From: Mesorhizobium sp.
GTDB taxonomy: Bacteria; Pseudomonadota; Alphaproteobacteria; Rhizobiales; Rhizobiaceae
NCBI GenBank assembly: GCA_004020545.1
Contig: SAQE01000001.1
Span: 62,001 to 126,000, forward strand
Length of the DNA: 64,000 bases
Reading direction: 5' to 3'
Shown: piece after piece, positions 9,008 through 50,150 of the stretch
How the letters are laid out: each line of letters begins with the position of its first letter
Numbering within the stretch: the stretch's first letter is position 1
Made by a program: the position numbers and the translations under genes
The notes under the pieces: generated by a model
Database searches by the model: none
What the model saw: only the letters and a program-made list of their open reading frames with translations
What the model was told of the DNA's origin: nothing

Positions 9008-9029
9008 CTTCCGTCTCCGGTAATCTTTC

Positions 9030-10738: not shown

Positions 10739-10757
10739 CGCTCAGCTCTCCGCGTTT

Positions 10758-31862: not shown

Positions 31863-32177
31863 TCAGCCGAGAATTTCCAAATCGAACACCATCAGCCCGT
31901 CGGTGCCGCCTTCGAGCGCGGCAACCAGCCGGGCCCCGGCGCGCCGATGCGCTTCGTGCACCAGATAGGCGTCGCGGGCATCGGCATCGCGGAAGTCGAT
32001 GGTGAAGCCATGGCTGAAGCCGCGTCCGAAAGGCTCGGGGCTGACATTGGCGCTGAAATGGACCTTGCCCATGCCGTCGATCAACGAGCGCAGCGCCTCC
32101 AGATCGGCGTGGATCGCCGCGCGCTCGGAGGAGGAGACATCGTCGCGGAAGCGGACGAAGACGCAGTGCCGGATCAT
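31863..32177 (-). CDS. Dabb (stress-responsive alpha/beta barrel) domain protein
   Basis: This 104-residue protein is a single dimeric alpha/beta barrel (Dabb) domain. It begins MIRHCVFVRFRDDVS, has NVSPEPFGRGFSHGFTIDF in the middle, and ends in a beta strand (LMVFDLEIL). Dabb domains are found in olivetolic-acid-cyclase-like enzymes and in small stress proteins. It is the last gene of the long minus-strand operon, 10 nt after the choline-dehydrogenase-like gene, which suggests an accessory or isomerase/cyclase role in that pathway. This is inference. Confidence 0.88.
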   Translation of the reverse strand: MIRHCVFVRFRDDVSSSERAAIHADLEALRSLIDGMGKVHFSANVSPEPFGRGFSHGFTIDFRDADARDAYLVHEAHRRAGARLVAALEGGTDGLMVFDLEILG

Positions 32178-32187
32178 TGTTCTTCCC

Positions 32188-33816
32188 TCAAGCCGCCCGG
32201 TTGCCCTTGAACACGGCCGGCGGCAGCGGCTCGCGGCCGAGGATCAGGTCGGCGCCCTTTTCGCCCACCATGATCGTCGGCGCGTTGGTGTTGGAGGAGG
32301 GAACACGCGGCATCACAGAGGCATCGCAGACGCGCAGGCCTTCTATCCCGCGCAGCCTGAGGTCCGGCGTCACCACCGCCATTTCGTCATGGCCCATGCG
32401 GCAGGTGCCGACCGGATGGTGGTCGGTCTTGGACGTGCGGCAGGCATAGTCGAAGAGGTCGTCATCGCTTTGCAAGGCAGGGCCGGGCAGCACCTCGCGC
32501 AGCACATAGGGCTGAAGCGCCTTCTGCCGCATGATCTCGCGTGCCAGCCGCAGGCCCTTGATCGACATATCGCGATCGTAGGGGTCGGACCAGTAGTTCG
32601 GATCTATCAGCGGATGGTCGACCGGGTCGGCGCTCTTCAGCCGCACCGTGCCGCGCGAGCGCGGGCGCAGGAAGGCGGAGTTCAGCGTCACGCCCGGGTT
32701 GTTCAGCTTCTCGACACCGGCCTCGATGCCGGAGCCGAGGCCGAGATGGAACTGGATGTCGGGCGAGGCGGATGTCGGGTCGGCGTACCAGAAGCCGCCC
32801 GTCTCGAACAGGCTGGAGGCGACAGGTCCCTTCTTGAGCAGAAGATATTGTAGGCCGGCCCATAGCGTGCGGTGCAGCTTGGCGTAATTGTCATAGGTGT
32901 GGTCGCCGGTGCATTCGGCGATCACGAACAGGTCAAGATGGTCCTGCATGTTTGAGCCGACGCCAGGCAGGTCGTGGACAGGTGTCACGCCGACCGATTT
33001 CAGATGGTCGGCCGGGCCGATGCCCGACTGCATCAGGAGCTTCGGCGAGCCGATGGACCCCGAGGAGACGATCACCTCGCGCGTGGCGCGCAGGATGGTC
33101 TTCTGCCCGCCCGGCTTGTCGACGATTTCGACGCCAACGGCTCGGCCCTTCTCGACGACGACGCGGGTGACGAGCACATCAGTCCTGACCGTCAAATTCT
33201 TCCGCGTACGGATCGGCTTCAGGTAGGCGACCGAGGCGGACGAGCGGCGCGCATCCTTCTGTGTGAGCTGGTAGTAGCCGACGCCCTCCTGGCTGGCGCC
33301 GTTGAAATCCGGATTGAAGGGGATGCCCATCTCCTGCCCGGCGCGGAAATAGGCCTCGCAGATCGGCAGCGGCGAGATCGGGTTGGAGACGCCGAGCGGG
33401 CCCTGGTCGCCATGGAAATCGTTGGCGAAGCGCTGGTTGTTCTCGGCGCGCTTGAAGTAGGGCAGCACGTCGCGATAGCCCCAGCCGGCGAGGCCCTCTT
33501 CCCTCTCCCAGGCGTCGTAATCGCGGGCGTTGCCGCGCGTGTAGATCTGGGCGTTGATCGATGAGCCGCCGCCCACCACCTTGGCCTGGGTATACCAGAA
33601 GACGCGGTCCTTCATGTTCTTCTGCGGCACGGTCGACCAGCCCCAGGAAGCGATGCCCTTGGTCATCTTGGCGAAGCCCGCCGGCATGTGGATCAGCGGA
33701 TGCCAGTCCTTGCCGCCGGCTTCCAGCAGCAGCACCGAATTCGATGGATCCTCGCTCAGCCGGTTGGCCAGCACGCAACCGGCCGGACCGGCGCCAACGA
33801 TGATGTAGTCAGCCAT
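32188..33816 (-). CDS. GMC oxidoreductase, choline dehydrogenase-like
   Basis: This is a 542-residue FAD-dependent GMC oxidoreductase. The FAD motif is IIVGAGPAGCVLANRLSED at the N-terminus; GGGSSINAQIYTRG is the GMC signature 1 region; the catalytic His is in HPVGTCRMG and the C-terminal NTNAPTIMVGEKG is the second signature. Members oxidise choline or other alcohols. The start is at ATG 33816 (MADYIIVG). It is unlikely to be a glycine-betaine gene here, since no betaine aldehyde dehydrogenase or BetI accompanies it. It lies 12 nt after the SDR in the large catabolic operon. Confidence 0.93.
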   Translation of the reverse strand: MADYIIVGAGPAGCVLANRLSEDPSNSVLLLEAGGKDWHPLIHMPAGFAKMTKGIASWGWSTVPQKNMKDRVFWYTQAKVVGGGSSINAQIYTRGNARDYDAWEREEGLAGWGYRDVLPYFKRAENNQRFANDFHGDQGPLGVSNPISPLPICEAYFRAGQEMGIPFNPDFNGASQEGVGYYQLTQKDARRSSASVAYLKPIRTRKNLTVRTDVLVTRVVVEKGRAVGVEIVDKPGGQKTILRATREVIVSSGSIGSPKLLMQSGIGPADHLKSVGVTPVHDLPGVGSNMQDHLDLFVIAECTGDHTYDNYAKLHRTLWAGLQYLLLKKGPVASSLFETGGFWYADPTSASPDIQFHLGLGSGIEAGVEKLNNPGVTLNSAFLRPRSRGTVRLKSADPVDHPLIDPNYWSDPYDRDMSIKGLRLAREIMRQKALQPYVLREVLPGPALQSDDDLFDYACRTSKTDHHPVGTCRMGHDEMAVVTPDLRLRGIEGLRVCDASVMPRVPSSNTNAPTIMVGEKGADLILGREPLPPAVFKGNRAA

Positions 33817-33828
33817 TGTTCCACTCAC

Positions 33829-34593
33829 TCACAAGCGAGGCACGGAAAGCGCGCCGTCGACATCGATGACCGATCCGGTCGAAAAGCCGAACTTGCCGGA
33901 GGCCAAAGCGGCTACCACCGCGCCGATATCTGCGGCTTCACCCCAGCGCTTGGCCGGCACCAGTCCGCCTTCGATCAGCGCGTCATATTTGGCGGAAACG
34001 CTTGACGTCATGTCGGTGCGGATGATGCCCGGCCGCACCTCGAACACGCCGATGTTTTCCGCCGCGAGTCGCAGCGCCAGGTTCTTCACCCACATCGAAA
34101 GGCCGGCCTTGGAGACGCAATAGTCGGCGCGTTCCGGCGAGGCCATCGTCGCGCTGACAGAGGTGATGGTGATGATCGATCTGGCGGAAACGGCAGGTCT
34201 CGCCAGCATCGCCTTGGCGACCGCCTGGCTGAGGAACACCGTGCCGCGCAGGTTGACAGCAATCGCGCGGTCGAAGTTTTCGGGTTTCAGCTCCAGAAGG
34301 TCGCCGCGCAGCACGGCGCCTATGCCGGCATTGTTGACCAGGCAGTCGATGCGGCCGAAGGCGCGCATGGCGGCACCGACAAGCGTTGTGTGATCGGCAA
34401 GGTCGGCAATATCACAGCGATGGTAGGCGAACGCTGCACGACGCGTTGTGATGTTCTCTATAAGCCGTTTGGTGGGGTCGTCGGCGAGGTCGGCGACAAG
34501 GATGTCGAAGCCGGCATCGGCCAGCGCTTCGGCACAGGCAAGCCCGATGCCGCGCGCGCCTCCGGTGACGATGGCCGCCGGGCGGTTCATCAT
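33829..34593 (-). CDS. SDR family oxidoreductase
   Basis: This is a 254-residue short-chain dehydrogenase: VTGGARGIG (9-17), NNAG (about 87-90), catalytic Tyr158/Lys162 in YCVSK and the family C-terminus GSVIDVDGALSV. The start is ATG 34593, giving a 4-nt overlap with the stop of the upstream GMC gene (ATGA), so the two are coupled. It probably works on an intermediate from the GMC-oxidised substrate (for example reduction of a ketone); no substrate can be read from sequence. Confidence 0.93.
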   Translation of the reverse strand: MMNRPAAIVTGGARGIGLACAEALADAGFDILVADLADDPTKRLIENITTRRAAFAYHRCDIADLADHTTLVGAAMRAFGRIDCLVNNAGIGAVLRGDLLELKPENFDRAIAVNLRGTVFLSQAVAKAMLARPAVSARSIITITSVSATMASPERADYCVSKAGLSMWVKNLALRLAAENIGVFEVRPGIIRTDMTSSVSAKYDALIEGGLVPAKRWGEAADIGAVVAALASGKFGFSTGSVIDVDGALSVPRL

Positions 34594-36107
34594 GACGCGA
34601 GCTCCGTCTTGCGGATATGGTCGGCGACGCGCAGCGCTTGCGCCGCGATCGACAGCGCCGGATTGACCGCGGCCGACGTCGGCAGGAAACCACCGTCGAC
34701 GACGAAAAGGTTCTTGTGATCGAAGGCGCGGCAGAATGGATCGAGCGGCGAGGTTGCCGGATCGTTGCCCATCTTCACAGTGCCGCACTGGTGCGACGGC
34801 GTGCGTTTGTCGAAGGGGCGCGACAGCACGATCGGATAACCGCAGGCGCGGAAGTTTTCACGCATCACCTTGGTCAGGCCCTCCAGCGACTGCATGTTGG
34901 AGCGCCGCCACTGCATGACGATCTCCTTGCCGTCGACCATGATGCGGCTCTCCGGATCGGGCAGGTCCTCGCACATCAGGTACCAGTCGACGGCGTGGCC
35001 GGCCATGAAATCGAGCGCGAATTTCGGCGCCAGCTTCACATTGGCTCTCAGCATGTTGCCGTCGATCTTGCCGAGCAACTGCACATTGCCCAGCGGCTTG
35101 CCGCCCTTGCCGTCCGACAGATAGTAGTCGTTGAGCATCAGCGTCTTCTGGTAGACGGCATCGTTGCGGCGGCGCGGATCGATCGCCAGCATCGCGCTCG
35201 AATTGTGGTTCATGAAATTGCGGCCGACCTGATCGGAGCTGTTGGCGAGACCCTTGCCGCCTGCCTTGCCATTGCCGGCGGAAGGCGAGCGCAGCAGGAT
35301 GACGGCGGAGTTGACCGCGCCGGCCGAGAGGATGACCAGCTTCGGCGAGAGCGCCTTTTGCGAACCGTTCTGCGTGTAGTGGATTGCGGCGATCGATTTG
35401 CCGTCCGGCGAGGCTTCGAGCCAGTCGACATGGGCGCCGGTCTCGAGCCGGATGTTGCTATCGGCGAGCGCCGCCGCCAGCGGTCCGGTCTGGGCATCGA
35501 CCTTGCCCTGGCCTGTATTCGGGAAAGCATCCCAACCGGTCTTGCCGTCCTTCAGCCAGGCTTCGATGTCGACGCCGAGCGGCAGCGAGGCCGGATGCAG
35601 GCCAAGGCTTTTGAGCTCGGCACGGGCGCGCGCGATTGCAGGCTCGTCAGGTACCGGCTTGAAGGCATAGGGGATCGAATGGAACGGCTCGGTCGGATCC
35701 TCGCCGAGCGTTCCGCGCACGCGAAAAAGCTGCTCGGCCTTCGAGTACCAGGGCTCGAACTCGTCATAGGAAAACGGCCAGGCCGGCGAGACGCCGCCGA
35801 AGTGTTCCAGCTCGGAGAAATCCTCCTTGCGGTAACGGATCAGCACCGCGCCGAAGAATTTCGAATTGCCGCCGACATAATAGTAGTTGCCGGGGTTGAA
35901 GGCCGGGCCGCCGGCCTCGCGCCACATCTCCTTCGGCCGGTAATGCTCCTCGACGAAGATGGATCGCGTCGAGCGCGCATGCGGCGTCGCAGGGAGATGG
36001 TCGCCTCGCTCCAAAATCAGGATCGAGGCACCGCTGCCGGCCAAGCCGGAGGCGATCGTGGCGCCGCCGATGCCGGAGCCGATGATGACGATATCCGGAT
36101 TTGCCAT
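34590..36107 (-). CDS. GMC family FAD oxidoreductase, sugar/glycoside oxidase-like
   Basis: This is a 505-residue GMC protein with IIGSGIGGATIASGLAGSG (FAD), GGNSKFFGAVLIRYRKEDF (a branch-specific segment in place of the choline-oxidase signature), the catalytic His in SHQCGTVKMG, and NPALSIAAQALR at the C-terminus. The branch includes pyranose- or glycoside-oxidising flavoenzymes that attack the sugar C3 hydroxyl. This assignment rests on remembered sequence features and not on a search. It is in the same operon as a sugar ABC importer, which fits a carbohydrate or glycoside substrate. Confidence 0.9.
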   Translation of the reverse strand: MANPDIVIIGSGIGGATIASGLAGSGASILILERGDHLPATPHARSTRSIFVEEHYRPKEMWREAGGPAFNPGNYYYVGGNSKFFGAVLIRYRKEDFSELEHFGGVSPAWPFSYDEFEPWYSKAEQLFRVRGTLGEDPTEPFHSIPYAFKPVPDEPAIARARAELKSLGLHPASLPLGVDIEAWLKDGKTGWDAFPNTGQGKVDAQTGPLAAALADSNIRLETGAHVDWLEASPDGKSIAAIHYTQNGSQKALSPKLVILSAGAVNSAVILLRSPSAGNGKAGGKGLANSSDQVGRNFMNHNSSAMLAIDPRRRNDAVYQKTLMLNDYYLSDGKGGKPLGNVQLLGKIDGNMLRANVKLAPKFALDFMAGHAVDWYLMCEDLPDPESRIMVDGKEIVMQWRRSNMQSLEGLTKVMRENFRACGYPIVLSRPFDKRTPSHQCGTVKMGNDPATSPLDPFCRAFDHKNLFVVDGGFLPTSAAVNPALSIAAQALRVADHIRKTELAS

Positions 36108-36112
36108 AGTCG

Positions 36113-37228
36113 TTAGAGGATACGCTTCTCGGTCGCCGGATCGAAGAACACCGCCTTGCTGAGGTTGAAGGCCAGCGGCGTGCTGGTGCCGGGCTGGATC
36201 CTGGCATCGGCGCGCAGCCGTGCCACCACGCCCTTGCCGCCGAGATTGGTGACGGCGAAGGTGTCGGAGCCGGCCGGCTCGACCACTTCGATGTGGCAGT
36301 CGGCGGTGGCGATCTCGGACCCGTTGCGCTCGGCGCCTTCCGGATCGGTCAGCGCCTCCGGGCGAACGCCGAAGATGACCTGCTTATCCTTGAAGGCCGC
36401 AAGGCCGGCCGGCGCTCCGGTCAGCGACAGCGTGATCGGCTGGCGCGCCTCGCGATCGAGCACGACGGAGAGCTCGCTGCCATTGGCGCCGATCTTGGCC
36501 GGAATCAGGTTCATCGCCGGCGAGCCCATGAAGTCGGCGACGAACACATTGGTGGGGTTGTTGTAGACCTCGGCCGGCGTGCCGAACTGCTGCACCTCGC
36601 CGTCGCGCATCACGGCGATCTTGGTCGCAAGCGTCATCGCCTCGATCTGATCGTGCGTGACATAGACGATCGTCGTGCCGGTGGTCGCGTGCAGGCGCTT
36701 GATCTCGATGCGCATGTCGACGCGCAGCTTGGCGTCGAGGTTGGAGAGCGGCTCGTCGAACAGGAACAACTTCGGGTCGCGCACCAGCGCGCGACCCATG
36801 GCGACACGCTGGCGCTGGCCGCCGGAGAGCTGGCTGGGCTTGCGCTGCAGGAGATGGCCGATCTGTAGGATCTTGGCCACCTTGTCGATGGCAGCCTGCC
36901 GCTCCGCCGCCGGCACGCCGCGCATTTCCATGCCAAAGGCGATGTTTCCGGCTACCGTCATGTTCGGATAGAGCGCGTAGCTTTGGAACACCATGGCGAT
37001 GTCGCGCTTCGAGGGATGCAGGTCGTTGATCGCCCGGCCCTCGACGCGGATCTCGCCTTCGGTGATGTTCTCCAGCCCGGCGATGGTGTTGAGCAGCGTG
37101 GACTTGCCGCAGCCGGACGGACCGACCAGCACGAGGAAGCCGCCCTTTTCGAGCTCGACATTGATGCCCTTCAGGATCTCGACATTCCCGAAGCGCTTCT
37201 TCAGCCCATCAATTTCCAGAAAAGCCAT
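36113..37228 (-). CDS. Sugar ABC transporter ATP-binding protein (UgpC/MsmK-like)
   Basis: This is a 371-residue ATPase of a CUT1-type carbohydrate importer. Walker A GPSGCGKST (36-44), Q-loop MVFQSYALYPNM, signature LSGGQRQRVAMG, Walker B LFLFDEPLSNLDAK, and a C-terminal OB/TOBE domain for regulation. The start is ATG 37228. It lies 23 nt after a permease and 5 nt before the GMC oxidoreductase gene, so transport and first oxidation are encoded together. Confidence 0.95.
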   Translation of the reverse strand: MAFLEIDGLKKRFGNVEILKGINVELEKGGFLVLVGPSGCGKSTLLNTIAGLENITEGEIRVEGRAINDLHPSKRDIAMVFQSYALYPNMTVAGNIAFGMEMRGVPAAERQAAIDKVAKILQIGHLLQRKPSQLSGGQRQRVAMGRALVRDPKLFLFDEPLSNLDAKLRVDMRIEIKRLHATTGTTIVYVTHDQIEAMTLATKIAVMRDGEVQQFGTPAEVYNNPTNVFVADFMGSPAMNLIPAKIGANGSELSVVLDREARQPITLSLTGAPAGLAAFKDKQVIFGVRPEALTDPEGAERNGSEIATADCHIEVVEPAGSDTFAVTNLGGKGVVARLRADARIQPGTSTPLAFNLSKAVFFDPATEKRIL

Positions 37229-37251
37229 GGTCGTTCCTTCAGAAAATAGGG

Positions 37252-38196
37252 TCAGCCCTTGACCGCGCCAGCCATCAGCCCGCGCACGAAATAACGGCCG
37301 GCGACGACATAGACGATCAGGGTGGGGAGCGCGGCGATCATCGCCGCAGCCATGTTGACGTTGTATTCGACGACGCCGGTCGAGGTGTTGACGACATTGT
37401 TCAGCGCCACCGTCATCGGCATCACGTCGCCGGTGCCGGCGTAGGCGGAAGCGAACAGGAAGTCGTTCCAGATGTTGGTGAATTGGTAGATGACGGTGAC
37501 GACGAAGATCGGCATCGAGTTCGGCAGCATGATGCGGCGGAAGATCTGGAAGAAGGACGCGCCGTCGACCTGCGCCGCCTTGATCAGTTCGGTCGGGAAG
37601 GCCTCGTAGTAGTTGCGGAAGAACAGCGTGGTGAAGCCGAGGCCGTAGACGACATGGACGAAGACCAGGTTGACGGTCGAATTGCCGAGACCGAAGTTGA
37701 AGCCGGTCGCGTTCCGCAGGCTGGCGCCGAAGCGGCCGATGCTGCCGAGGATCGTCGCCATCGGCAGAAGCACCGACTGGAACGGGATGAAGCAGGCGAA
37801 CAGCATCATCGCGAAGACAAGCGTATGGCCGCGGAAGCGCCATTTGGTCAGCACATAGCCGTTGAGCGCGCCGAGTAGCGTCGAGATCAGCACCGCCGGC
37901 ACCACCATCTTGATGGAGTTCCAGAAGTAGCCCTTGATCCCCGCACAGGTCAGACCGACGCAGGTCTCACCCCAGGCCTTGAACCATGGCTCGATGGTCG
38001 GCGACTGCGGCAGCGCCAGCATGTTGCCGTTCTGGATCTCGTCCATGGTCTTGAACGAGGTGACCAGCATGACGAAGAGCGGCATCAGGTAGAACAGCGC
38101 GAACAGCGCAAGCAGCCCGTAGATGACGATGCGGTTGATCGTCTTGGCGCTGACGCCGCTCGAGGCCTGGCGGGCAGGTGAGGTGACGGCGCTCAT
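37252..38196 (-). CDS. Carbohydrate ABC transporter permease
   Basis: This is a 314-residue membrane permease of the CUT1 MalG type. About six hydrophobic segments are visible, with the ATPase-contact EAA loop AFPTELIKAAQVDGASFF and the conserved C-terminal segment RYFVRGLMAGAVKG. It overlaps the partner permease gene by 4 nt. Glucose/mannose-type importers (GtsABCD-like) have this length and loop. Substrate unknown; probably a mono- or disaccharide-like compound. Confidence 0.94.
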   Translation of the reverse strand: MSAVTSPARQASSGVSAKTINRIVIYGLLALFALFYLMPLFVMLVTSFKTMDEIQNGNMLALPQSPTIEPWFKAWGETCVGLTCAGIKGYFWNSIKMVVPAVLISTLLGALNGYVLTKWRFRGHTLVFAMMLFACFIPFQSVLLPMATILGSIGRFGASLRNATGFNFGLGNSTVNLVFVHVVYGLGFTTLFFRNYYEAFPTELIKAAQVDGASFFQIFRRIMLPNSMPIFVVTVIYQFTNIWNDFLFASAYAGTGDVMPMTVALNNVVNTSTGVVEYNVNMAAAMIAALPTLIVYVVAGRYFVRGLMAGAVKG

Positions 38197-39152
38197 CGCG
38201 GCTTCTCCCTGAGCTCGGAATAGAGGTAAGGCACGATGATCGCGGTCAGCGTCATCAGCATGATCACGGCGCTCGCCGATCCGACCGCCATCTCGTTTCG
38301 CTTGAAGGTGAACTCATACATGAAGTTGGACGGCAGCCAGGCCGAGCCGCCCGGCCCGCCGCTGGTCAGCGCCACCACCAAGTCATAGGACTTGATGGCC
38401 AGATGGGCGAGCACGATGAAGGCCGACAGGAACACCGGACGCAGCAGCGGAATGACGATGCGGCGGTAGAGCTGGAAGGTGGAGGCGCCGTCGATCTGCG
38501 CGGCCTTCATGATCTCGCCGTCGATGCCGCGCAGGCCGGCCAGGAACATCGCCATGATGAATCCGGAAGCCTGCCAGACGCCGGCGATGACCACTGTGTA
38601 GATGACGAAATCCTTGTTCTTGATCCAGTCGAAATGGAAGCTCGTCCAGCCCCATTGATGCAGCGTCTGCTCGAGGCCGAGGCCGGGGTCGAGGAACCAC
38701 TTCCAGGCGACGCCGGTGACGATGAAGGACAGCGCCATCGGGTAGAGGTAGATCGGCCGCAGCACGCCTTCGCCGCGGATCTTCTGGTCGAGCAGGATGG
38801 CCAGGAACAGGCCGAGCGCCAGGCAGATCAGGATGTAGAGGAAGCCGAAAATGCCCATGTTGGTGATCGAGGTGTACCAGCTCGACGGCGGGTCGCTCTC
38901 GAAGGTCCAGCGCCACAGCCGCTGATAGGCGCGGGCGCCTGTGATGTCATAGGACGGGAAGGTCTTGGAGTTGGTGAACGACAGATAGATCGTCCACAGG
39001 ATGAAGCCATAGACGAAAACGATCGTCGCCGCGAAGCTCGGCGCCAGAACGATCTTCGGCAACAGATCCTGCAACCGCGAGCGGACGGTCGCGCTAGGGC
39101 GGGTGTCGGGCCCCCGTGTCAGCTTGATGGTGGTTTCGGCAACTGTGCTCAT
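38193..39152 (-). CDS. Carbohydrate ABC transporter permease
   Basis: This is a 319-residue MalF-type permease. The N-terminal cytoplasmic part holds KLTRGPDTRPSATVRSRLQD, followed by six hydrophobic segments and the EAA loop GEIMKAAQIDGASTFQLYRR. I start at ATG 39152 (MSTVAETTIKL); the frame extends upstream to 39203 without clear similarity. It is 131 nt after the binding-protein gene, a gap holding a strong hairpin, and overlaps the second permease. Confidence 0.93.
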   Translation of the reverse strand: MSTVAETTIKLTRGPDTRPSATVRSRLQDLLPKIVLAPSFAATIVFVYGFILWTIYLSFTNSKTFPSYDITGARAYQRLWRWTFESDPPSSWYTSITNMGIFGFLYILICLALGLFLAILLDQKIRGEGVLRPIYLYPMALSFIVTGVAWKWFLDPGLGLEQTLHQWGWTSFHFDWIKNKDFVIYTVVIAGVWQASGFIMAMFLAGLRGIDGEIMKAAQIDGASTFQLYRRIVIPLLRPVFLSAFIVLAHLAIKSYDLVVALTSGGPGGSAWLPSNFMYEFTFKRNEMAVGSASAVIMLMTLTAIIVPYLYSELREKPR

Positions 39153-39238
39153 CGGCTCATCCCAGTACCGGTTGGTCGGAAACTGCCCGGCGCAAAGACG
39201 CACCAGGATCTGCTCCGCACCTTTTGTCGACAGGACAC

Positions 39239-39260
39239 CTCCCCCGCCGAGGCGGGGGAG
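39239..39260 (-). other. GC-rich hairpin after the sugar-binding-protein gene
   Basis: A 10-bp self-complementary run CTCCCCCGCC/GGCGGGGGAG lies between the binding-protein and permease genes. There is no T-run. It mirrors the arrangement after the first importer's binding-protein gene and probably raises binding-protein mRNA stability. Confidence 0.65.
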
Positions 39261-39283
39261 ACTCGAGTTTACGGCAAAACGCC

Positions 39284-40537
39284 TTACTTGGCGTCGTCGA
39301 TGGCCTTGACCAGCTCGGTCACGGCCTCATCCGAGGTCTTGATCTGACCGTGAACGAACTTCGACACGACGTCCTTGTAGGCGTTGGCGACCGCCGGAGG
39401 CGCGCCGTAGCCCTGGGCCAGCGAGCCGAACAGCGTGCCGCCTTCGTTGGCCTTCTTCAGGTCGGCGATGCCCTTCTTGCCGCAGGCGTCGAAGTCGGTG
39501 TCCGGCACGTCGGTACGGGCCGGGACCGAGCCCTTCACGACGTTGAAGGCCGACTGGAAGCTCTTCGACAGGGTGGCGGTGGCAAGTGCCACCTGGGCGG
39601 CCTTGCGGTCGTCCGGAACGTTGAACATGCCGAACATGTCGGAGTTGTAGACCACCGAGCCGTCGGTGCCCGGGAAGCGGTAGCAGAGGAAGTCGGTGCC
39701 CGGGGTCTTGTTGGCGGCGTGGAACTCGCCCTTGGCCCAGTCGCCCATGACCTGAACCAGCGCGTCGCCCTTGATGACCATGGCGGTGGCAAGGTTCCAG
39801 TCGCGGCCCGAGAAGTTCGGGTCGACATAGGTGACGAGCTTGGCGAGGTTGTCGAACGACTTCTTCATCGTGTCGGACTTGAGCGACTCGTCATCGAGGT
39901 CGTTCATCGCCTTCTTGTAGAACTCCGGTCCGCCGGTCGACAGCACGACGGAGTCGAACATGGTGGCTTCCTGCCAGTTCTGGCCGCCGAGAGCGAGCGG
40001 GATGACGCCCGCAGCCTTGGCCTTGTCGAGCAAGGCGACGAAGTCGTCGAAGGTCTTCGGCTCGGTGCCGCCGATCTTGTCCATCACCGCCTTGTTGATC
40101 CACAGCCAGTTGACGGAGTGGACGTTGACCGGAGCTGCGACCCACTTGCCGTCATAAACGGAGAATTTCTGCAGGGCGGCCGGAACCGACTTGTCCCAGC
40201 CTTCCTTCTTGGCGGTCTCGGTGAGGTCGCCCATGACGCCGGCGGCGGCATAGTCGAGCACGGTGTAGCCGAGCATCTGCGAGGCGGTCGGATAGTTGCC
40301 GGCCGCGACCATCGCCTTCAGCGCGGTCATGGCGGCGTCGCCGCCGCCGCCGGCCACCGGCACGTCCTTCCAGGCATAGCCTTCCTTGGCCAGATCCTGC
40401 TTCAGCACGTTCAGAGCAGCCGCTTCGCCGCCCGACGTCCACCAATGCAGCATCTGCACTTCCTTGACGTCCGCGGCATGCGCCGAGAACGCAAAGCTCG
40501 TCGCAAGAGCCGTTCCGATAAGCAGTTTGCGCAACAT
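39284..40537 (-). CDS. Carbohydrate ABC transporter substrate-binding protein
   Basis: This is a 417-residue periplasmic protein. The signal peptide [20 protein letters not shown] ends near AHA-AD; the mature start [19 protein letters not shown] is that of glucose/mannose-type family-1 binding proteins (GtsA-like). Aromatic-rich segments such as [13 protein letters not shown] are the expected sugar-binding type. It is the binding component for the permeases and ATPase that follow, and it sits 58 nt after the aldehyde dehydrogenase gene. Confidence 0.94.
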
Positions 40538-40595
40538 GTACTACCTCCCTTGTTGCATGCACATAACCGGCGGATGGCCGCCGGGGTCTCCCAAC

Positions 40596-42107
40596 TCAGC
40601 CGACCCACCATCCGGTGCGCTGGCCGCGATGAAACTGGATAGTCTTTTCCTCGGTATAATCCTCGACGGCGCGTTTGCCGAGTTCGCGTCCGAGACCGGA
40701 CTGCTTGTAGCCGCCGAAGGGCAGTTCGGGATAACCTTCCATGAACGTATTCACCCAAACCGTCCCCGAACGCACACCGCGCGCCACCGACATGCATGTG
40801 TCGATGCTGGCGCTCCACACACCCGCAGACAAACCATAGGGCGTGTTGTTGGCGATGTGCAATGCCTTTTCAATCGTTTCAAAAGTGAGCACGGACAGCA
40901 CCGGCCCGAACACTTCCTCGCGGGCGATGGCCATGTCCTCGGTGACGTCCCGCACGATGGTCGGGTCGAGATACTGACCGGCGTTGGAGGCGAGCTGTCC
41001 GCCGCCGCTGTAGACGCTGCCGCCATCGGTTTTCGCCGCCGTCACATAGCCGGCTACTTTTGTCATGTGGTCGGCCGAGATCATGGCGCCGACCTTGGTG
41101 CGGTCGTCAAGCGGATCGCCGACTTTCACCTTCTCGGCCAGCGCCTTGACCGCACCGAGGAAGTCATCGGCGATCGCTTCGTGCACGATCAGCCGGCTGC
41201 CGGCATTGCAGCATTCGCCGGCGTTGAAGAAGCCGCCGAACACCGCGGCATCCGCCGCCGCTTCGAGGTCGGCATCGGGGAAGACGATCTGGCCGTTCTT
41301 GCCGCCAAGCTCCATCGAAACCTTCTTCAAGGAATTCGAGGCGGCGGCCATGGTCATCTTGCCGACGCGGGTCGAGCCGGTGAAGGACACCATCTCGACC
41401 AGCGGGTGGCTGACCATCGGCGCGCCGACATCGGCGCCGAGACCCGCGAGGATGTTGACGACGCCAGCCGGCAGGCCAGCCTCGAGCAGGATGTCGCCGA
41501 GCACGAAGGTCGAGGCCGAGGTCATCTCGCTCGGCTTGACCACCGCCGTGCAGCCAGCGGCGAGCGCGAAGGGCAGCTTCTGGCTGACGATCAGGAACGG
41601 GAAATTCCACGGCGTGATGATCGAGACGACGCCGATCGGCTCGCGCAGCACAACGCCCAGCATGGACTCGCCGAGATTGGCGTAGCTCTCGCCATGCAGC
41701 GTCCGCGCAAGCGAGGCGGCGTAGCGCCAGATATCGACGCCGCCGCCGATCTCGCCGCGCGCCTGGGCGATCGGCTTGCCGGATTCCAGCGCGTCGAGCC
41801 TAGCAATCTCTTCCAGCCGGGTCTCGATCAGGTCGGCCGCCTTGAGCAGTACCGCGGCGCGCTCTGAGGCCTTCATGCGCGGCCATGGGCCGGTCTCGAA
41901 AGCCTTGTGAGCAGCCTGCACAGCGGCCTCGACCTCCGCCGCGCCTGCCTGGGCATAGCGCGAAACGGCAAAGCCGTGGCCTGGGCTGCTGCGCTCGATG
42001 GCGCGGCCGTCGCGGGCGTCGACATGCTTGCCGTCGATCAAAAGCTTGTAGGTCTTCGGCGCCTGCGACGCCTCGGCCGGCATGGCAATGTTGAGAGGTG
42101 CGTTCAT
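40596..42107 (-). CDS. Aldehyde dehydrogenase
   Basis: This is a 503-residue NAD(P)-dependent aldehyde dehydrogenase. Catalytic Cys in GFFNAGECCNAG, general base Glu in MELGGKNGQIVFPD, cofactor loop FTGSTRVGK, and NVSTF-like C-terminal VNTFMEGYPELPFGGYKQSG. Members of this branch oxidise betaine, succinate or glyceraldehyde-type aldehydes; the exact substrate is unknown. It lies 9 nt after the enoyl-CoA hydratase gene and likely oxidises an aldehyde made by cleavage or oxidation earlier in the pathway. Confidence 0.94.
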   Translation of the reverse strand: MNAPLNIAMPAEASQAPKTYKLLIDGKHVDARDGRAIERSSPGHGFAVSRYAQAGAAEVEAAVQAAHKAFETGPWPRMKASERAAVLLKAADLIETRLEEIARLDALESGKPIAQARGEIGGGVDIWRYAASLARTLHGESYANLGESMLGVVLREPIGVVSIITPWNFPFLIVSQKLPFALAAGCTAVVKPSEMTSASTFVLGDILLEAGLPAGVVNILAGLGADVGAPMVSHPLVEMVSFTGSTRVGKMTMAAASNSLKKVSMELGGKNGQIVFPDADLEAAADAAVFGGFFNAGECCNAGSRLIVHEAIADDFLGAVKALAEKVKVGDPLDDRTKVGAMISADHMTKVAGYVTAAKTDGGSVYSGGGQLASNAGQYLDPTIVRDVTEDMAIAREEVFGPVLSVLTFETIEKALHIANNTPYGLSAGVWSASIDTCMSVARGVRSGTVWVNTFMEGYPELPFGGYKQSGLGRELGKRAVEDYTEEKTIQFHRGQRTGWWVG

Positions 42108-42116
42108 CAGGTTCCT

Positions 42117-42885
42117 CTAGGATCTCGAAAAGGCCGGCTTCTGCTTGGCCTTGAAGGCGCCGACGCCGGCCTTGAGGTCAGCGGTGAGCGCGATGAAGCC
42201 GCTGGCCAGCGCTTCGGCCGCCGCGGCATTCTCCTCGCCCTCGGCAATGCCGATCATCAGCTTGGTGGCCTCGGTCGCCAGCGGCCCGCGTTCGGCGATC
42301 TTTTCTCCCCAGGCCTTCGCATCCTCGAAGGCCTTGCCGGTCTCGACGACGCGGTCGACGATGCCAAGCGCGAGCGCGTCGGCCGCCAGGAAAATCTCGC
42401 CGCCAAGCGCCATGCGCTTGACCGCCTGCGTGCCGAAGCGGCGCACGGCGCGCTGCGTGCCGGACCAGCCGGGCACCACGCCGATCGAGGTTTCCGGAAA
42501 GCCGAGCTTCACCTGGGTTTCGGCGACACGGAAGTCGCAGGCCGCGGCCAGTTCCAGCCCGCCGCCCAGCGCATGGCCGGACAGCACCGCGATGGTCGGT
42601 TGCCGAAGCCGCGCCAGCCGGTCGAAGACGCGGTGGCCGTAGCGCACCCATTGCACCTGAAAATCGGCGGCGCTCAATTGTGCCCAGGCCTCGACGTCGC
42701 CGCCGGCGCAGAAGCCTTTGCCTTCGCCACGGATGAGTACGACGCGGACGCCCTCGGCCAGTTCCGCCTCGTGGAGTGCGGTTTCGAGTGCCCGCAACAT
42801 CGGAATGTCGAGCGCGTTGAATTTTTCCGGCCGGCGCAGCGTGACGACGCCGATGGCGCCGTCCTGCTCGAAGGTGACAAGGCGC

Positions 42886-42893
<8 letters not shown>
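42117..42893 (-). CDS. Enoyl-CoA hydratase/isomerase
   Basis: This is a 258-residue crotonase-fold protein. The oxyanion-hole and substrate segments are seen in GKGFCAGGDVEAW, ALGGGLELAAACDFRV and the catalytic-type Glu in GFPETSIGVVPGWSG. It hydrates or isomerises enoyl-CoA, or cleaves a beta-keto/hydroxy CoA. ATG 42893 lies 8 nt inside the end of the CoA-transferase gene, so the two are translationally coupled. CoA-transferase plus crotonase indicate that the pathway activates a carboxylic acid as its CoA ester. Confidence 0.94.
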
Positions 42894-46549
<3,656 letters not shown>

Positions 46550-46584
46550 GTCAGTGCTTTCCTCCGCGTCTGGCATCAAATCTA

Positions 46585-46621
46585 TTGGAACGTTCTAAAC
46601 GTGATACCAAACCAGAGTCAA
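46585..46621 (-). promoter_or_regulatory. Promoter/operator of the LacI-headed operon
   Basis: On the minus strand TTGACT (46616-46621) and TTAGAA (46593-46598) have a 17-bp spacer. The operator TTAGAACGTTCCAA (46585-46598) overlaps the -10, with the CG-centred half-sites GGAACG/CGTTCT expected of LacI proteins. This supports repression of the whole operon and autoregulation. Confidence 0.7.
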
Positions 46622-46729
46622 TCGGGATTCGCGCGGAAACCGAAAAATTGATGGATGAGCCGCAAACGCAAGGGTATAGCGCCATGATTCGACATTGAAT
46701 CGCTTCAGTCGCAGGGATCATAAAGATCC

Positions 46730-46758
46730 TTGATTTATTGGAACGTTCCATTTATAGG
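46730..46758 (+). promoter_or_regulatory. Promoter/operator of the DUF993 gene
   Basis: TTGATT (46730-46735) and TATAGG (46753-46758) are spaced by exactly 17 bp. The perfect palindrome TGGAACGTTCCA (46739-46750) fills the spacer, an ideal place for LacI-type repression. The core is shared with the site at 46585-46598. Confidence 0.75.
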
Positions 46759-46779
46759 CTGCCGCAAAGGGAGACTTCC

Positions 46780-47934
46780 ATGGACATCATCCTGCCTGCG
46801 GAGAATGGCGCTCGAGCCAGCTACCGGCTGGTCGGCCAACCGGCGAAGGCGACCGTCGGCGCGGATTTTCCCCGCGTCGCCTATGCTGCGGCCCATGTCG
46901 TCGCCGACCCCTTCGCCATGACCGATCCCTGGTCGCGGCCAGCGGTCGACTGGGACAGGACCATGGCCTTCCGTCATCATCTGTGGCGGCTTGGTTTCCG
47001 GATTGCGGAAGCGATGGACACCTCGCAGCGCGGCATGGGTTTCGACTGGGTGAGCGCGAAGGAACTGATCCGGCGCTCGATCGCCGAGGCGCGCACGGTG
47101 AAGGGCGCCGATCTCGCTTCGGGCGCCGGCACCGACCATCTGGCGCCTGCGGCGGCCAAGTCGCTGGATGACGTGATCCATGCCTACGAGGAGCAGTTCG
47201 CCTTCATCGAGGGCGAGGGCGGCAAGGCGATCATGATGGCAAGCCGCGCGCTGGCGGCGGTGGCCAAGGGGCCGGACGACTATGCCCGCGTCTACGACCG
47301 CATCCTGTCGCAGGCGTCCGGCAAGGTCATCCTGCATTGGCTGGGCGACATGTTCGATCCGGCATTGAAAGGGTATTGGGGAAGCGATGAATTCGACGCC
47401 GCGCTCGATACGGTCGTCGCGATCATCGAGCGGCATGCCGGCAAGGTCGAAGGCATAAAGATATCGTTGCTCGATGCCGGCAAGGAGGTGTCGCTACGCA
47501 ACCGGTTGCCCGAGGGCGTGGTGATGTTCACGGGCGACGATTTCAACTACCCGGAATTGATCGCCGGCGACGGCAAGAGGCATTCGCACGCGCTGCTCGG
47601 CATTTTCGACGCCATCGCGCCGGTTGCCAACGCCGCGCTGGTGAAGCTCGGCGCGGGTGATCGGGCCGGCTATGACGCGCTGATGGCGCCGACCGTGCCG
47701 CTGTCGCGCAAAATCTTCGAGGCGCCGACCGAATATTACAAGGCCGGCATCGTCTTCATGGCCTGGCTGAACGGGCACCAGGACCATTTCACCATGGTCG
47801 GCGGCATGCAGTCGGCGCGTGGCATATGCCACTACGCCGACGTCTTCCGCCTCGCCGATCAGGCCGGATTGCTGGCCGATCCCGAGCGCGCCGTCGCCAG
47901 GATGAAGAGCCTCTTAGCGGTCGCAGGTGCCTGA
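46780..47934 (+). CDS. DUF993, dihydrodipicolinate-synthase-like protein
   Basis: This is a 384-residue protein I recognise as the DUF993 family, distantly related to the DHDPS/NAL class of Schiff-base aldolases. A lysine (about 227) lies in KVEGIKISLLDAG, resembling the VGIKD motif with the DHDPS catalytic lysine. The DFNYPELIAGDGKRHSH segment may be the active-site loop. The start is ATG 46780 with AAAGGGAG upstream. It is divergent from, and co-regulated with, the LacI operon, so it may carry out the aldol cleavage step of that pathway. The function is inferred. Confidence 0.85.
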   Translation: MDIILPAENGARASYRLVGQPAKATVGADFPRVAYAAAHVVADPFAMTDPWSRPAVDWDRTMAFRHHLWRLGFRIAEAMDTSQRGMGFDWVSAKELIRRSIAEARTVKGADLASGAGTDHLAPAAAKSLDDVIHAYEEQFAFIEGEGGKAIMMASRALAAVAKGPDDYARVYDRILSQASGKVILHWLGDMFDPALKGYWGSDEFDAALDTVVAIIERHAGKVEGIKISLLDAGKEVSLRNRLPEGVVMFTGDDFNYPELIAGDGKRHSHALLGIFDAIAPVANAALVKLGAGDRAGYDALMAPTVPLSRKIFEAPTEYYKAGIVFMAWLNGHQDHFTMVGGMQSARGICHYADVFRLADQAGLLADPERAVARMKSLLAVAGA

Positions 47935-48375: not shown

Positions 48376-48450
48376 TGGTGGGCGTGACAAGGATTGAACT
48401 TGTGACCCCTGCAATGTCAATGCAGTGCTCTCCCGCTGAGCTACACGCCC
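48376..48450 (-). tRNA. tRNA-Val (anticodon GAC)
   Basis: This is a complete cloverleaf of 75 nt including an encoded CCA. Acceptor GGGCGTG/CACGCCC, D stem GCTC/GAGC with loop AGCGGGA, anticodon arm CTGCA-TTGACAT-TGCAG giving anticodon GAC, five-base variable loop GGGTC, and T arm ACAAG/CTTGT with loop TTCAATC. It reads valine GUC codons. It is on the minus strand upstream of the small lipoprotein's end and next to cpdR. Confidence 0.97.
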
Positions 48451-49092: not shown

Positions 49093-50034
49093 ATGGCAGT
49101 TTCGCGTGATGATGCAATGCTTCATCCTGGTTCGTTCAAATTGAAGACGGCAGCCGAGGATTTTTCGGTCGTTCCACCCTTCGAAATCCGATTGGGCGCC
49201 GAGCAGCGCGTCCCTTTCCTGTTCAATTCGCCGCATAGCGGCCGCCACTATCCCGAGCGCTTCCTCGCCATGGCGAGGCTCGACCGCAACGCCATCCGGC
49301 GGTCGGAGGATTGCTATGTCGAGGAGCTTTTCGGCGGCGCCGTTGCGCTCGGCGCGCCGATGCTGGCGGCGAATTTCCCGCGCGCCTATCTCGACGTCAA
49401 CCGCGAGCCGTGGGAGCTCGATCCGCGCATGTTCGCGGAGCCGGTGCCGTCCTTCTGCAATATCCGCTCGGCCCGTGTGGCAGGCGGGCTCGGCACGGTG
49501 CCGAAACTGGTGGGGGAGGGGCTGGACATCTATCCAGGGCGCCTGCCGCTTGCCGAGGCCGTCGGACGCATAGAGGCCGTCTACAAGCCGTATCACGAGA
49601 CGCTGAAGCGGCTGCTGACCAGAACCCATGCGAGGTTCGGCTATGCCGTGCTCATCGACTGCCATTCGATGCCGGCCAGCATCCGCGTCGGCGACAATGG
49701 GGTGCGGCCCGACTTCATCATCGGCGACCGTTTCGGCATTTCCGCGGCGGCGGCTTTGACCGAGACGGCGATCGGCCTGCTCACCGGCATGGGTTACGCG
49801 GTCGCGCACAACAAGCCCTATGCCGGCGGCTTCATCACCGAGCATTACGGGCGGCCGGCACGTCATCTGCATGCGCTGCAGATCGAGGTCAATCGCGGGC
49901 TTTACATGAACGAGCGGACGTTCCAGAGATCGGCCGGCTTCGACGCTTTAGCCGACGACCTGACGCGCTTTTCGGCCGAACTGGTGTCGATGCCCGACCA
50001 TAATTTCGTCGATCTGCCGCTCGCCGCGGAATGA
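49093..50034 (+). CDS. N-formylglutamate amidohydrolase (HutG-like branch)
   Basis: This is a 313-residue N-formylglutamate amidohydrolase. Zinc- and substrate-site motifs: FLFNSPHSGRHYPERF, DVNREPWELDPRMFA, IDCHSMPA and GGFITEHYGRP. It releases formate and glutamate from N-formylglutamate, the last step of one histidine-utilisation route. No hut genes are near, and the gene neighbours cpdR and an sRNA gene, so its role may be general. It is a second, more typical paralog of the protein at 16690-17508. Confidence 0.93.
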   Translation: MAVSRDDAMLHPGSFKLKTAAEDFSVVPPFEIRLGAEQRVPFLFNSPHSGRHYPERFLAMARLDRNAIRRSEDCYVEELFGGAVALGAPMLAANFPRAYLDVNREPWELDPRMFAEPVPSFCNIRSARVAGGLGTVPKLVGEGLDIYPGRLPLAEAVGRIEAVYKPYHETLKRLLTRTHARFGYAVLIDCHSMPASIRVGDNGVRPDFIIGDRFGISAAAALTETAIGLLTGMGYAVAHNKPYAGGFITEHYGRPARHLHALQIEVNRGLYMNERTFQRSAGFDALADDLTRFSAELVSMPDHNFVDLPLAAE

Positions 50035-50059
50035 CAGCCGCGTTTGCGGCTCGCGGCTC

Positions 50060-50092
50060 AAAAAAAGACCGCATCGTTTTCACGACACGGTC
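50060..50092 (-). terminator. Rho-independent terminator of the sRNA
   Basis: On the minus strand GACCGUGUCGU closes a GAAA loop with ACGAUGCGGUC, and seven U follow. Two of the 11 pairs are G-U wobbles that would be C-A mismatches if the other strand were transcribed, so minus-strand transcription is favoured. Confidence 0.88.
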
Positions 50093-50148: not shown

Positions 50149-50150
50149 CA

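What the first reader, a model, noticed from the sequence alone, without database searches (positions are those of the whole stretch)
31863..47934. A self-regulated 13-gene catabolic operon plus divergent DUF993: possible undescribed carbohydrate/CoA pathway
Thirteen minus-strand genes (46549 to 31863) have only tiny gaps or overlaps (several ATGA/GTGA). Order: LacI, Gfo/Idh, CoA-transferase, crotonase, ALDH, sugar-binding protein, two permeases, ATPase, GMC, SDR, GMC, Dabb; DUF993 faces the regulator. Seen: a CUT1-type importer together with two GMC oxidases, CoA chemistry and a DHDPS-like protein with a candidate Schiff-base lysine. Known: sugars are imported by CUT1; GMC and Gfo/Idh enzymes oxidise sugars; DHDPS-fold enzymes cleave keto-acids. 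Inference: an imported glycoside or sugar acid is oxidised, cleaved (DUF993), and the acid pieces enter beta-oxidation by CoA-transferase and crotonase. I know no named pathway with this exact gene set.
Basis: partly seen in the sequence, partly recalled or inferred. Interest (0 to 1): 0.75.

Follow-up and report, generated by a model that had tools for sequence, protein, structure and literature searches.

The report
Anhydrosugar-reductase operon with CoA-linked breakdown genes
A conserved rhizobial operon, built around a known enzyme that reduces a starch-derived sugar (1,5-anhydrofructose), is a good candidate for the missing genes by which oxygen-using soil bacteria digest 1,5-anhydro sugars.

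Summary
In detail: thirteen minus-strand genes with gaps of -8 to 131 bp, DUF993 divergent. Two palindromic operators (46585-46598, 46738-46751) lie in the shared promoter region; 69 of 70 distinct related regions hold at least one, so self-regulation is likely. DUF993 probably starts at ATG 46780, not TTG 46738, which lies in an operator.

The S. meliloti AFR crystallised as 4koa is identical, over the 205 residues compared, to the gene at this place in the same operon of an S. meliloti strain. The solute-binding protein belongs to the glucose-binding clade.

AFR directly precedes the CoA-transferase in 62 of 63 loci holding both. Several relatives add glycerate kinase. DUF993 has the DHDPS aldolase fold with an invariant lysine at the Schiff-base position.

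Best reading: aerobic catabolism of 1,5-anhydro-hexoses. C2 is inverted via AF to anhydromannitol, C6 oxidised, the acid activated with CoA and dehydrated, and DUF993 cleaves the product to pyruvate and D-glyceraldehyde, then glycerate. The AFR step is known from relatives; the rest is inferred. A 2025 review calls the enzyme after AFR unidentified.

The parts
46780..47934 (+). DUF993 (PF06187) protein, DHDPS-superfamily fold; candidate aldolase, Lys227 at the Schiff-base position
   Evidence: start codon
46738..46751 (.). operator-like palindrome TTGGAACGTTCCAT, DUF993 side
46585..46598 (.). operator-like palindrome TTGGAACGTTCTAA, LacI side
45497..46549 (-). LacI-family regulator
44484..45494 (-). 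1,5-anhydro-D-fructose reductase (AFR) orthologue, Gfo/Idh/MocA family
42886..44487 (-). family I acyl-CoA transferase, YdiF/FadX type, single chain
42117..42893 (-). crotonase / enoyl-CoA hydratase with both Glu at the hydratase positions
40596..42107 (-). aldehyde dehydrogenase; best NCBIfam score betaine-aldehyde dehydrogenase, below that model's cutoff
39284..40537 (-). CUT1 solute-binding protein, 62% to glucose-bound Oant_3817 (4r2b)
38193..39152 (-). ABC permease 1
37252..38196 (-). ABC permease 2
36113..37228 (-). UgpC/MalK-type ABC ATPase
34590..36107 (-). GMC1 oxidoreductase (NCBIfam matches all far below cutoff: MftG, choline DH, pyranose oxidase); paired with AFR alone on a Bradyrhizobium plasmid
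33829..34593 (-). SDR (PRK12745 family, above NCBIfam cutoff)
32188..33828 (-). GMC2 oxidoreductase, choline-dehydrogenase-like (just above the subfamily cutoff, 608.2 against 605 bits)
31863..32177 (-). Dabb alpha/beta-barrel protein

Best explanation
The operon is a LacI-controlled system for importing and aerobically degrading 1,5-anhydro-hexoses: 1,5-anhydro-D-fructose (AF, from starch or glycogen) and probably 1,5-anhydroglucitol (AG) and 1,5-anhydromannitol (AM). The CUT1 transporter takes up the glucose-like ring. GMC1 oxidises C2 of AG to give AF (inferred), and AFR reduces AF to AM (activity known for the orthologues), so C2 is inverted. GMC2 and ALDH, a choline-DH/betaine-aldehyde-DH-like pair, oxidise C6 to the carboxylate (inferred). 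The CoA-transferase makes the uronyl-CoA and the crotonase removes the beta-hydroxyl at C4 (inferred); hydration of the resulting enol ether opens the ring to a 2-keto-3-deoxy-hexonate (inferred; enzyme for this hydration unassigned). DUF993, a DHDPS-fold enzyme with a lysine at the Schiff-base position, cleaves it to pyruvate and D-glyceraldehyde, which goes to D-glycerate and, by glycerate kinase, to glycerate phosphate (inferred). Working through the stereocentres, the manno compound gives 2-keto-3-deoxy-D-gluconate and D-glyceraldehyde whereas the gluco compound would give L-glyceraldehyde, which would explain why AFR makes the manno isomer. SDR and Dabb have no firm role in this scheme. 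Rough odds: substrate class 0.55; DUF993 as the C-C lyase 0.45; the exact CoA-dehydration route 0.3.
For: Gfo/Idh hits AFR of S. morelense (2glx, E 2e-140) and S. meliloti (4koa, E 3.5e-137), the next PDB sequence at 7e-30. It is 65.4% identical to the S. meliloti Ak57 gene, which equals 4koa over 205 of 205 compared residues and sits in the same operon, followed there by glycerate kinase. Lys93, His179 and Arg38 invariant in 64 of 64 loci. Of 63 loci with both AFR (50% or more) and CoA-transferase (55% or more), AFR lies directly upstream of the CoA-transferase in 62, and the genes found on that strand (3 to 13 per locus, median 8) follow the window's order in 61; in the other two LacI stands at the far end. 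In 199 genomes of the order, 16 of 21 AFR-like places lie next to a CoA-transferase of 60% identity or more, and 21 of 27 such CoA-transferases have DUF993 within 16 kb, against 2 of 44 at 38-43%. SBP: 62% to 4r2b 'with bound glucose', then glucose/galactose-binding proteins. smc04396, by number order this operon's SBP gene, is induced by dextrin (one passage of PMC4960864). AFR and GMC1 stand as a pair on a Bradyrhizobium plasmid. Glycerate kinase follows DUF993 directly in Microvirga and L087 and ends the operon in R. daejeonense; the own genome has a 52% homologue elsewhere. DUF993: Foldseek 4dnh, then DHDPS at E 3.5e-9 and weaker; Lys227 aligns with the DapA lysine and is invariant in 152 of 152 loci, 137 distinct. 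Crotonase Glu pair in 82 of 82 and CoA-transferase Glu327 in 85 of 85 loci with a close CoA-transferase. Rhizobiaceae metabolise AF via AFR, next enzyme unidentified (PMC12441222 section 5.1). Stereochemistry.
Against: The same review says AM is hydroxylated at C1 to mannose by an unidentified P450-like enzyme, which would not need the CoA genes. The SBP clade binds glucose itself. AFR also reduces osones (recalled), so AF need not be the natural substrate. The CoA module also occurs without AFR behind other front ends (pSymA, Paracoccus, Sagittula, Rhizobium plasmids), so it is not specific to AF. 5 of 21 AFR-like places lack the CoA-transferase; two of them, in G012, lie instead beside a related SBP, permease, ATPase, GMC and ALDH without CoA-transferase or DUF993. 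6 of 27 close CoA-transferases lack nearby DUF993; 5 of these 6 genomes have DUF993 elsewhere. SDR is in the smallest set seen (Polaromonas) but has no clear role here. DUF993 lacks the GTTGE motif, does not match PF00701, and the profile alignment with DapA has a probability of only 34.5%. The dextrin link rests on locus-number order and on a citation in another paper.
Confidence: 0.5

Rival explanations
1. Published route: AF is reduced to AM by AFR and AM is hydroxylated at C1 to D-mannose by a P450-like enzyme; the CoA-transferase, crotonase and DUF993 act later or on something else.
For: Stated in PMC12441222 section 5.1 for S. morelense. The own genome has four P450 matches.
Against: No P450 among the 14 operon genes, none of the four genome matches is on the window's contig, and none is listed in six annotated AFR loci read, whose gene tables are incomplete. 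The review calls the enzyme unidentified. AFR is nevertheless tightly linked to the CoA genes.
Confidence: 0.17
2. Deoxy-sugar-acid route like oxidative deoxyribonate catabolism: CoAT, crotonase and SDR act as a beta-oxidation loop and DUF993 takes the place of thiolase or beta-keto acid cleavage enzyme, releasing glyceryl-CoA, then glycerate.
For: Price et al. 2019 (PMC6365646; abstract and 12 passages seen) describe SDR + BKACE, or CoA-synthetase + dehydrogenase + thiolase, with glycerate kinase and, in Klebsiella, a CoA-transferase. The sister CUT2 clusters add acyl-CoA dehydrogenase and, in most, ETF. SDR belongs to the smallest set seen.
Against: No thiolase or DUF849 among the 14 genes. 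A DHDPS-fold lysine enzyme suits aldol chemistry, not thiolysis (inference). Leaves AFR, GMC1 and the glucose-type SBP unexplained.
Confidence: 0.15
3. The operon handles glucose or 2-keto-glucose (osones): the SBP imports glucose, GMC1 forms 2-keto-glucose and the AFR orthologue reduces it to mannose, which is oxidised further.
For: 4r2b and its nearest neighbours are glucose/galactose binders; AFR's osone activity is recalled, not from a call.
Against: Does not explain the CoA chemistry when Entner-Doudoroff enzymes would serve (inference); AFR comes from a strain isolated on AF as sole carbon source.
Confidence: 0.12
4. One reading: an imported glycoside is oxidised, cleaved by DUF993 and its pieces enter beta-oxidation.
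For: Family-level functions.
Against: No glycosidase, thiolase or acyl-CoA dehydrogenase among the 14 genes; the binding protein's nearest relatives bind monosaccharides.
Confidence: 0.05

Closest known systems
1,5-anhydro-D-fructose reductase pathway of Sinorhizobium morelense (Kuhn 2006; paper not held, known here through PMC12441222 and PDB 2glx/4koa)
   Same: The Gfo/Idh gene is an orthologue; the S. meliloti AFR of 4koa lies in this very operon type
   Different: The published scheme, as told by the review, ends in C1 hydroxylation to mannose by an unidentified enzyme; whether Kuhn 2006 discusses the neighbouring genes is not known to me
Oxidative deoxyribose/deoxyribonate catabolism (Price 2019, PMC6365646)
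   Same: SDR and glycerate kinase, and in Klebsiella a CoA-transferase, around a C-C cleaving enzyme
   Different: Uses BKACE or thiolase; in the passages seen no ABC transporter and no dihydrodipicolinate-synthase-like protein is mentioned
Anaerobic 1,5-AG/1,5-AM breakdown in gut bacteria (glycyl-radical YbiW/PflD; described in PMC12441222)
   Same: Same sugar class
   Different: PTS phosphorylation and oxygen-sensitive radical chemistry; none of these genes among the 14 here
DHDPS / N-acetylneuraminate lyase / KDG aldolase superfamily (PF00701)
   Same: DUF993 shares the fold and lysine position
   Different: Own Pfam family, no PF00701 match, GTTGE motif replaced by AMDTxQRGMG, invariant His186 near the place of the DHDPS tyrosine (inferred from strand order, not from a superposition)
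3-oxoacid/propionate CoA-transferase route from myo-inositol in Anaerostipes (PMC8355322; abstract and passages seen)
   Same: CoA-transferase and an enoyl-CoA hydratase/dehydratase in sugar-polyol catabolism
   Different: Works on 3-oxopropionate after phosphorylated iol steps; no AFR or DUF993 in the passages seen

Membership tests
1,5-anhydro-D-fructose reductase (AFR) | Orthology to characterised AFRs well above other Gfo/Idh proteins | tested here: met
   2glx E 2e-140, 4koa E 3.5e-137, next best E 7e-30
1,5-anhydro-D-fructose reductase (AFR) | EKP lysine and HDAD histidine (catalytic assignment recalled) | tested here: met
   64 of 64 loci
1,5-anhydro-D-fructose reductase (AFR) | NADPH-site Ser34/Arg38 (assignment recalled) | tested here: inconclusive
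   Arg38 in 64 of 64; position 34 Ser in 40, Thr in 19, Ala in 3, Val in 1 of 64
1,5-anhydro-D-fructose reductase (AFR) | Reduces AF to 1,5-anhydro-D-mannitol | not testable with these tools
   needs an assay
DHDPS/NAL aldolase superfamily | (beta/alpha)8 fold like DHDPS | tested here: met
   AF2 pLDDT 91.8; Foldseek DHDPS E 3.5e-9, probability 1.00, TM 0.64 of query and 0.81 of target
DHDPS/NAL aldolase superfamily | Schiff-base lysine | tested here: met
   Lys227 aligns with the DapA GVK lysine, profile probability only 34.5%; invariant in 152 of 152 loci
DHDPS/NAL aldolase superfamily | GTTGE pyruvate-carboxylate motif (recalled) | tested here: not met
   AMDTxQRGMG at that place
PF00701 (DHDPS family proper) | Pfam PF00701 match | tested here: not met
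   only PF06187 at E 0.001
Family I CoA-transferase, YdiF/FadX type | Two-domain single chain with catalytic Glu | tested here: met
   PF01144; 2ahu E 2e-111; Glu327 in 85 of 85 loci; catalytic role recalled
Enoyl-CoA hydratase (crotonase) | Two catalytic glutamates (recalled) | tested here: met
   both Glu in 82 of 82 loci
CUT1 sugar ABC importer | SBP_bac_1 protein, two permeases, UgpC/MalK ATPase | tested here: met
CUT1 sugar ABC importer | Binds an anhydro sugar | not testable with these tools
   nearest relatives bind glucose/galactose
Autoregulated LacI operon | HTH domain and palindromic operators in the shared promoter region | tested here: met
   PF00356; two sites in the window; at least one in 69 of 70 distinct related regions, two or more in 65 (a loose pattern); binding not tested
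Oxidative deoxyribonate pathway | BKACE (DUF849) or thiolase | tested here: not met
   absent from the 14 genes
Published AM-to-mannose route | P450-like C1 hydroxylase in the locus | tested here: not met
   four P450 matches in the genome, none on the window's contig

The most novel reading that the evidence does not exclude
Bacteria carry a CoA-thioester route for cyclic ether sugars: a crotonase dehydrates a 1,5-anhydro-uronyl-CoA, the resulting enol ether opens the ring to 2-keto-3-deoxy-gluconate, and DUF993 is a new family of unphosphorylated keto-deoxy-acid aldolase. Related clusters (CUT2 type on pSymA of S. meliloti and in Paracoccus; another in Raoultella) would use the same module for further polyols.
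Probability: 0.25. Interest if true: 0.85.

Novelty: new variant of a known kind. Interest (0 to 1): 0.62.

Why it matters
[quoted passage not shown] Linking AFR to a 14-gene, operator-controlled, widely conserved operon gives named genes to delete and assay, a candidate reaction class for a protein family of unknown function (DUF993; one structure, 4dnh, found by sequence search), and a possible CoA-dependent way to open an ether ring. The same review says that lowering intestinal 1,5-AG with a probiotic would need an enzyme that works aerobically; 1,5-AG is the precursor of the 6-phosphate behind the neutropenia of GSDIb and G6PC3 deficiency (abstract seen).

Tried and rejected
myo-Inositol by the Anaerostipes CoA route: rejected because iol genes are absent from the operon. 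Deoxyribonate route: kept as a rival. Glycoside hydrolysis: some large ORFs beside AFR loci were looked at for glycosidases by reading their first 70 residues; the 1170-1173 aa ones read like an RND pump by eye, and no family search was made on them. A third near-perfect operator site in the genome (G000:C122:146059) has none of the queried genes in the 16 kb fetched around it. The control for that whole-genome scan, the pattern read backwards, gave 12 sites against 7 for the true pattern at up to two mismatches, so only the near-perfect sites mean anything. The enolase-like reading of the protein beside type B DUF993 is weak: no Pfam hit, NCBIfam E 2e-4 and 3e-6, no PDB hit; it is not used as evidence. 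Paper searches: 'DUF993' gave 0 papers; GMC/CoA-transferase/sugar-transporter/inositol terms gave 2 unrelated papers; AF, operon and CoA-transferase terms gave nothing on such an operon among the 15 listed of 1,289; locus-tag searches gave 1 paper (unrelated organism), 1 paper and 33 papers, 25 listed, nearly all for the enzyme name. Kuhn 2006 and the S. meliloti transporter-induction study (DOI from memory) are not held. The ORF caller mislabels some genes (for instance antisense ORFs); conclusions rest on the tblastn layouts, family searches and annotated records. An earlier order count (63 of 63) left out LacI and genes on the other strand; one search gives the fuller count used here: 61 of 63, with four transporter genes of L067 and Dabb of L184 on the other strand.

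Full report
What is there. Twelve junctions between the thirteen minus-strand genes range from -8 to 131 bp; only two exceed 25 bp (58 and 131 bp), and no terminator-like site falls in either, though two overlapping weak ones lie at the permease/ATPase junction (one search printed 137 for the larger gap because I gave it a start 6 bp off). DUF993 faces the LacI gene. Its likely start is ATG 46780: the TTG at 46738 is the first base of an operator-like palindrome, and the ATG with its purine-rich leader aligns in most of the 12 regions compared.

Regulation. Two near-perfect palindromes, TTGGAACGTTCTAA (46585-46598) and TTGGAACGTTCCAT (46738-46751), are the only matches in the 64-kb window at up to two mismatches, against 0.08 expected. 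In the whole genome three sites have at most one mismatch, two of them here; at up to two mismatches the true pattern has 7 sites and the reversed control 12, so weaker sites mean nothing. Between divergent LacI and DUF993 genes, 69 of 70 distinct regions hold at least one such site and 65 two or more by a loose pattern; by the stricter palindrome filter many Rhizobium, Shinella and Sinorhizobium loci show one. The exception is L087. Self-regulation is therefore likely; binding is untested, and the consensus scan found no sigma-70-like promoter between the two genes. In R. daejeonense a second LacI gene lies between ALDH and SBP, and a similar gene lies there in several Shinella and Rhizobium loci, so the operon may be split there in relatives.

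Conservation. DUF993 is found in 33 of 37 same-genus genomes. LacI to GMC2 is complete in 7 of 7 same-genus loci fetched on the operon side, Dabb in 6 of 7. Named loci whose DUF993 is 85-90% identical are Mesorhizobium. Among the loci held, 63 (62 distinct AFR sequences) contain both a CoA-transferase of at least 55% and an AFR of at least 50% identity; AFR lies directly upstream of the CoA-transferase in 62, and the same-strand genes found (3 to 13 per locus, median 8, since many loci are cut) follow the window's order in 61; in L164 and L166 LacI stands at the far end. In 199 genomes of the order, searched at E 1e-100 for the CoA-transferase, 21 of 27 places of at least 60% identity have DUF993 within 16 kb, against 2 of 44 places at 38-43%; at genome level 22 of 23 genomes with the close CoA-transferase have DUF993, against 32 of 176 without (the genomes are related, so the Fisher value is not a probability).

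The anchor. The Gfo/Idh protein matches two characterised 1,5-anhydro-D-fructose reductases (2glx, S. morelense; 4koa, S. meliloti) at E 2e-140 and 3.5e-137; the next PDB sequence is at 7e-30. A gene annotated 1,5-anhydro-D-fructose reductase stands at the same place in the corresponding operon of S. meliloti Ak57, is 65.4% identical to the window protein, and equals 4koa over all 205 residues compared. So a biochemically studied enzyme belongs to this operon type. The AFR-like places in the order's genomes lie next to the close CoA-transferase in 16 of 21 cases, and in 13 of 15 at 60% identity or more. The exceptions are G078, G180, G051 and two in G012. The stretches fetched around them hold no CoA-transferase or DUF993 match; the G012 stretch does hold a related SBP (46%), permease, ATPase, GMC and ALDH.

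Uptake. The solute-binding protein is 62% identical to Oant_3817, solved with bound glucose, followed by glucose/galactose-binding proteins. In four Ochrobactrum/Brucella genomes with the operon the nearest relatives of this SBP lie at other places than the operon's own stretch, so Oant_3817 may not be the operon's transporter there. A paper states that smc04396 is induced by dextrin (one passage of PMC4960864). That smc04396 is this operon's SBP gene is inferred from number order: SMc04390-04392 are listed as L-sorbose dehydrogenase, SDR and a dehydrogenase (a passage of PMC12542648), and SMc04400 is AFR (recalled). AF arises from starch or glycogen by alpha-1,4-glucan lyase of fungi and red algae, and in traces by other GH31 glycosidases (PMC12441222, passages).

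Product. Several relatives place a glycerate kinase in the operon: after GMC2 in S. meliloti Ak57, after Dabb in R. daejeonense, and directly after DUF993 in Microvirga and L087. Others, such as Peteryoungia and Rhizobium CCGE531, show none in the stretch read. The own genome has a 52% and a 35% homologue elsewhere. GMC2 is choline-dehydrogenase-like and ALDH scores best with betaine-aldehyde dehydrogenase, below that model's cutoff; such a pair oxidises a primary alcohol to an acid (established knowledge).

DUF993. AlphaFold2 from 37 sequences gives pLDDT 91.8; Foldseek returns SMc04132 (4dnh, 61%) and then DHDPS-family enzymes at E 3.5e-9 and weaker. Profile alignment puts Lys227 on the DapA lysine, with low overall probability (34.5%). 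Lys227, His186, Thr81, Arg84 and Asp253 are invariant in 152 of 152 loci, 137 of them distinct. The GTTGE motif is absent, so its preferred keto-acid may differ from that of DHDPS.

Mechanism. The scheme in Best explanation uses every enzyme except SDR and Dabb. Known: AF to AM by AFR homologues. Shown here: gene linkage, folds and conserved catalytic residues. Inferred: all substrates after AM. Bookkeeping of stereocentres shows that oxidising C6, losing the C4 hydroxyl and opening at C5 turns the manno compound into 2-keto-3-deoxy-D-gluconate, hence D-glyceraldehyde and D-glycerate, while the gluco compound would give the L-series. GMC1 followed by AFR would invert C2; the two genes stand together without the rest on a Bradyrhizobium plasmid. 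Against it: the published next step is C1 hydroxylation to mannose by a P450-like enzyme, SDR is unassigned, the enzyme that would hydrate the enol ether is unassigned, and the CoA module also serves clusters without AFR.

Variants. A second arrangement (S. meliloti pSymA, Paracoccus, Sagittula, several Rhizobium plasmids, Roseateles) joins DUF993, SDR, CoA-transferase, crotonase, GMC and ALDH to an alcohol dehydrogenase, two aldo/keto reductases, acyl-CoA dehydrogenase and a sugar isomerase-like protein, with a CUT2 importer (outside the stretch read for Roseateles) and, in some, ETF and glycerate kinase; no GMC is annotated in the Paracoccus stretch. Polaromonas shows only DUF993, LacI, CoA-transferase, crotonase and SDR of this set in the 14.6 kb read, with a polar-amino-acid-type binding protein. 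A third arrangement (Gfo/Idh, DUF993, AP_endonuc_2) shows no CoA genes in the stretches read and goes with TctC- or NMT1-type transporters. DUF993 thus probably catalyses one reaction class in several pathways.

Verdict. It is not a pathway without any known part; its first intracellular step is known, and the remainder is a testable proposal for the missing aerobic genes of 1,5-anhydro-hexose catabolism.

Noticed in passing
L041:3129-24636: S. meliloti 1021 pSymA holds a sister cluster with DUF993, SDR, acyl-CoA dehydrogenase, CoA-transferase, crotonase, GMC, ALDH, two aldo/keto reductases, glycerate kinase, ETF and a CUT2 importer; substrate unknown.
   Followed up: partly
L083, L096, L103 and similar, around 8600-12100: Gfo/Idh - DUF993 - AP_endonuc_2 trio with TctC- or NMT1-type transporters and, in many loci, a divergent enolase-like protein (weak match only); a DUF993 setting without CoA genes in the stretches read.
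   Followed up: partly
L129:11503-15176: In Paraburkholderia caribensis a protein annotated as ThiF-family adenylyltransferase sits between the CoA-transferase and DUF993, where the crotonase would be expected.
   Followed up: no
L180:7989-10664: AFR (63%) and GMC1 (59%) stand as an isolated pair near transposases on a Bradyrhizobium diazoefficiens plasmid, with an MFS permease beside them.
   Followed up: partly
L178:57-19900 (G012:C27): Two AFR-like genes (47-51%) beside a related CUT1 binding protein, permease, ATPase, GMC and ALDH, without CoA-transferase or DUF993: possibly a paralogous anhydro-sugar cluster.
   Followed up: partly
L179:14998-26879: A small plasmid of Roseibium porphyridii, from the red alga Porphyridium cruentum, carries AFR, CoA-transferase, crotonase, ALDH, the CUT1 importer and GMC1; red algae are among the known makers of 1,5-anhydrofructose.
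   Followed up: no
L033:827-16119: DUF993 cluster with a 40% CoA-transferase, a CaiB-type CoA-transferase, MaoC, two GMC proteins and a CUT2-type importer: a further variant.
   Followed up: no
window 48376-48450: tRNA-Val (gac) on the minus strand about 440 bp beyond DUF993.
   Followed up: no
window 49093-51110: N-formylglutamate amidohydrolase and inositol monophosphatase family genes to the right of the operon.
   Followed up: no
L042 (CP090106.1): The record is titled pSymB but is 3.72 Mb long, which fits the S. meliloti chromosome better (size of chromosome recalled).
   Followed up: no
L133:1501-1514 (G000:C122:146059-146072): Third near-perfect operator-like palindrome in the genome, far from the operon; none of the queried genes lies within the 16 kb fetched around it.
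   Followed up: partly
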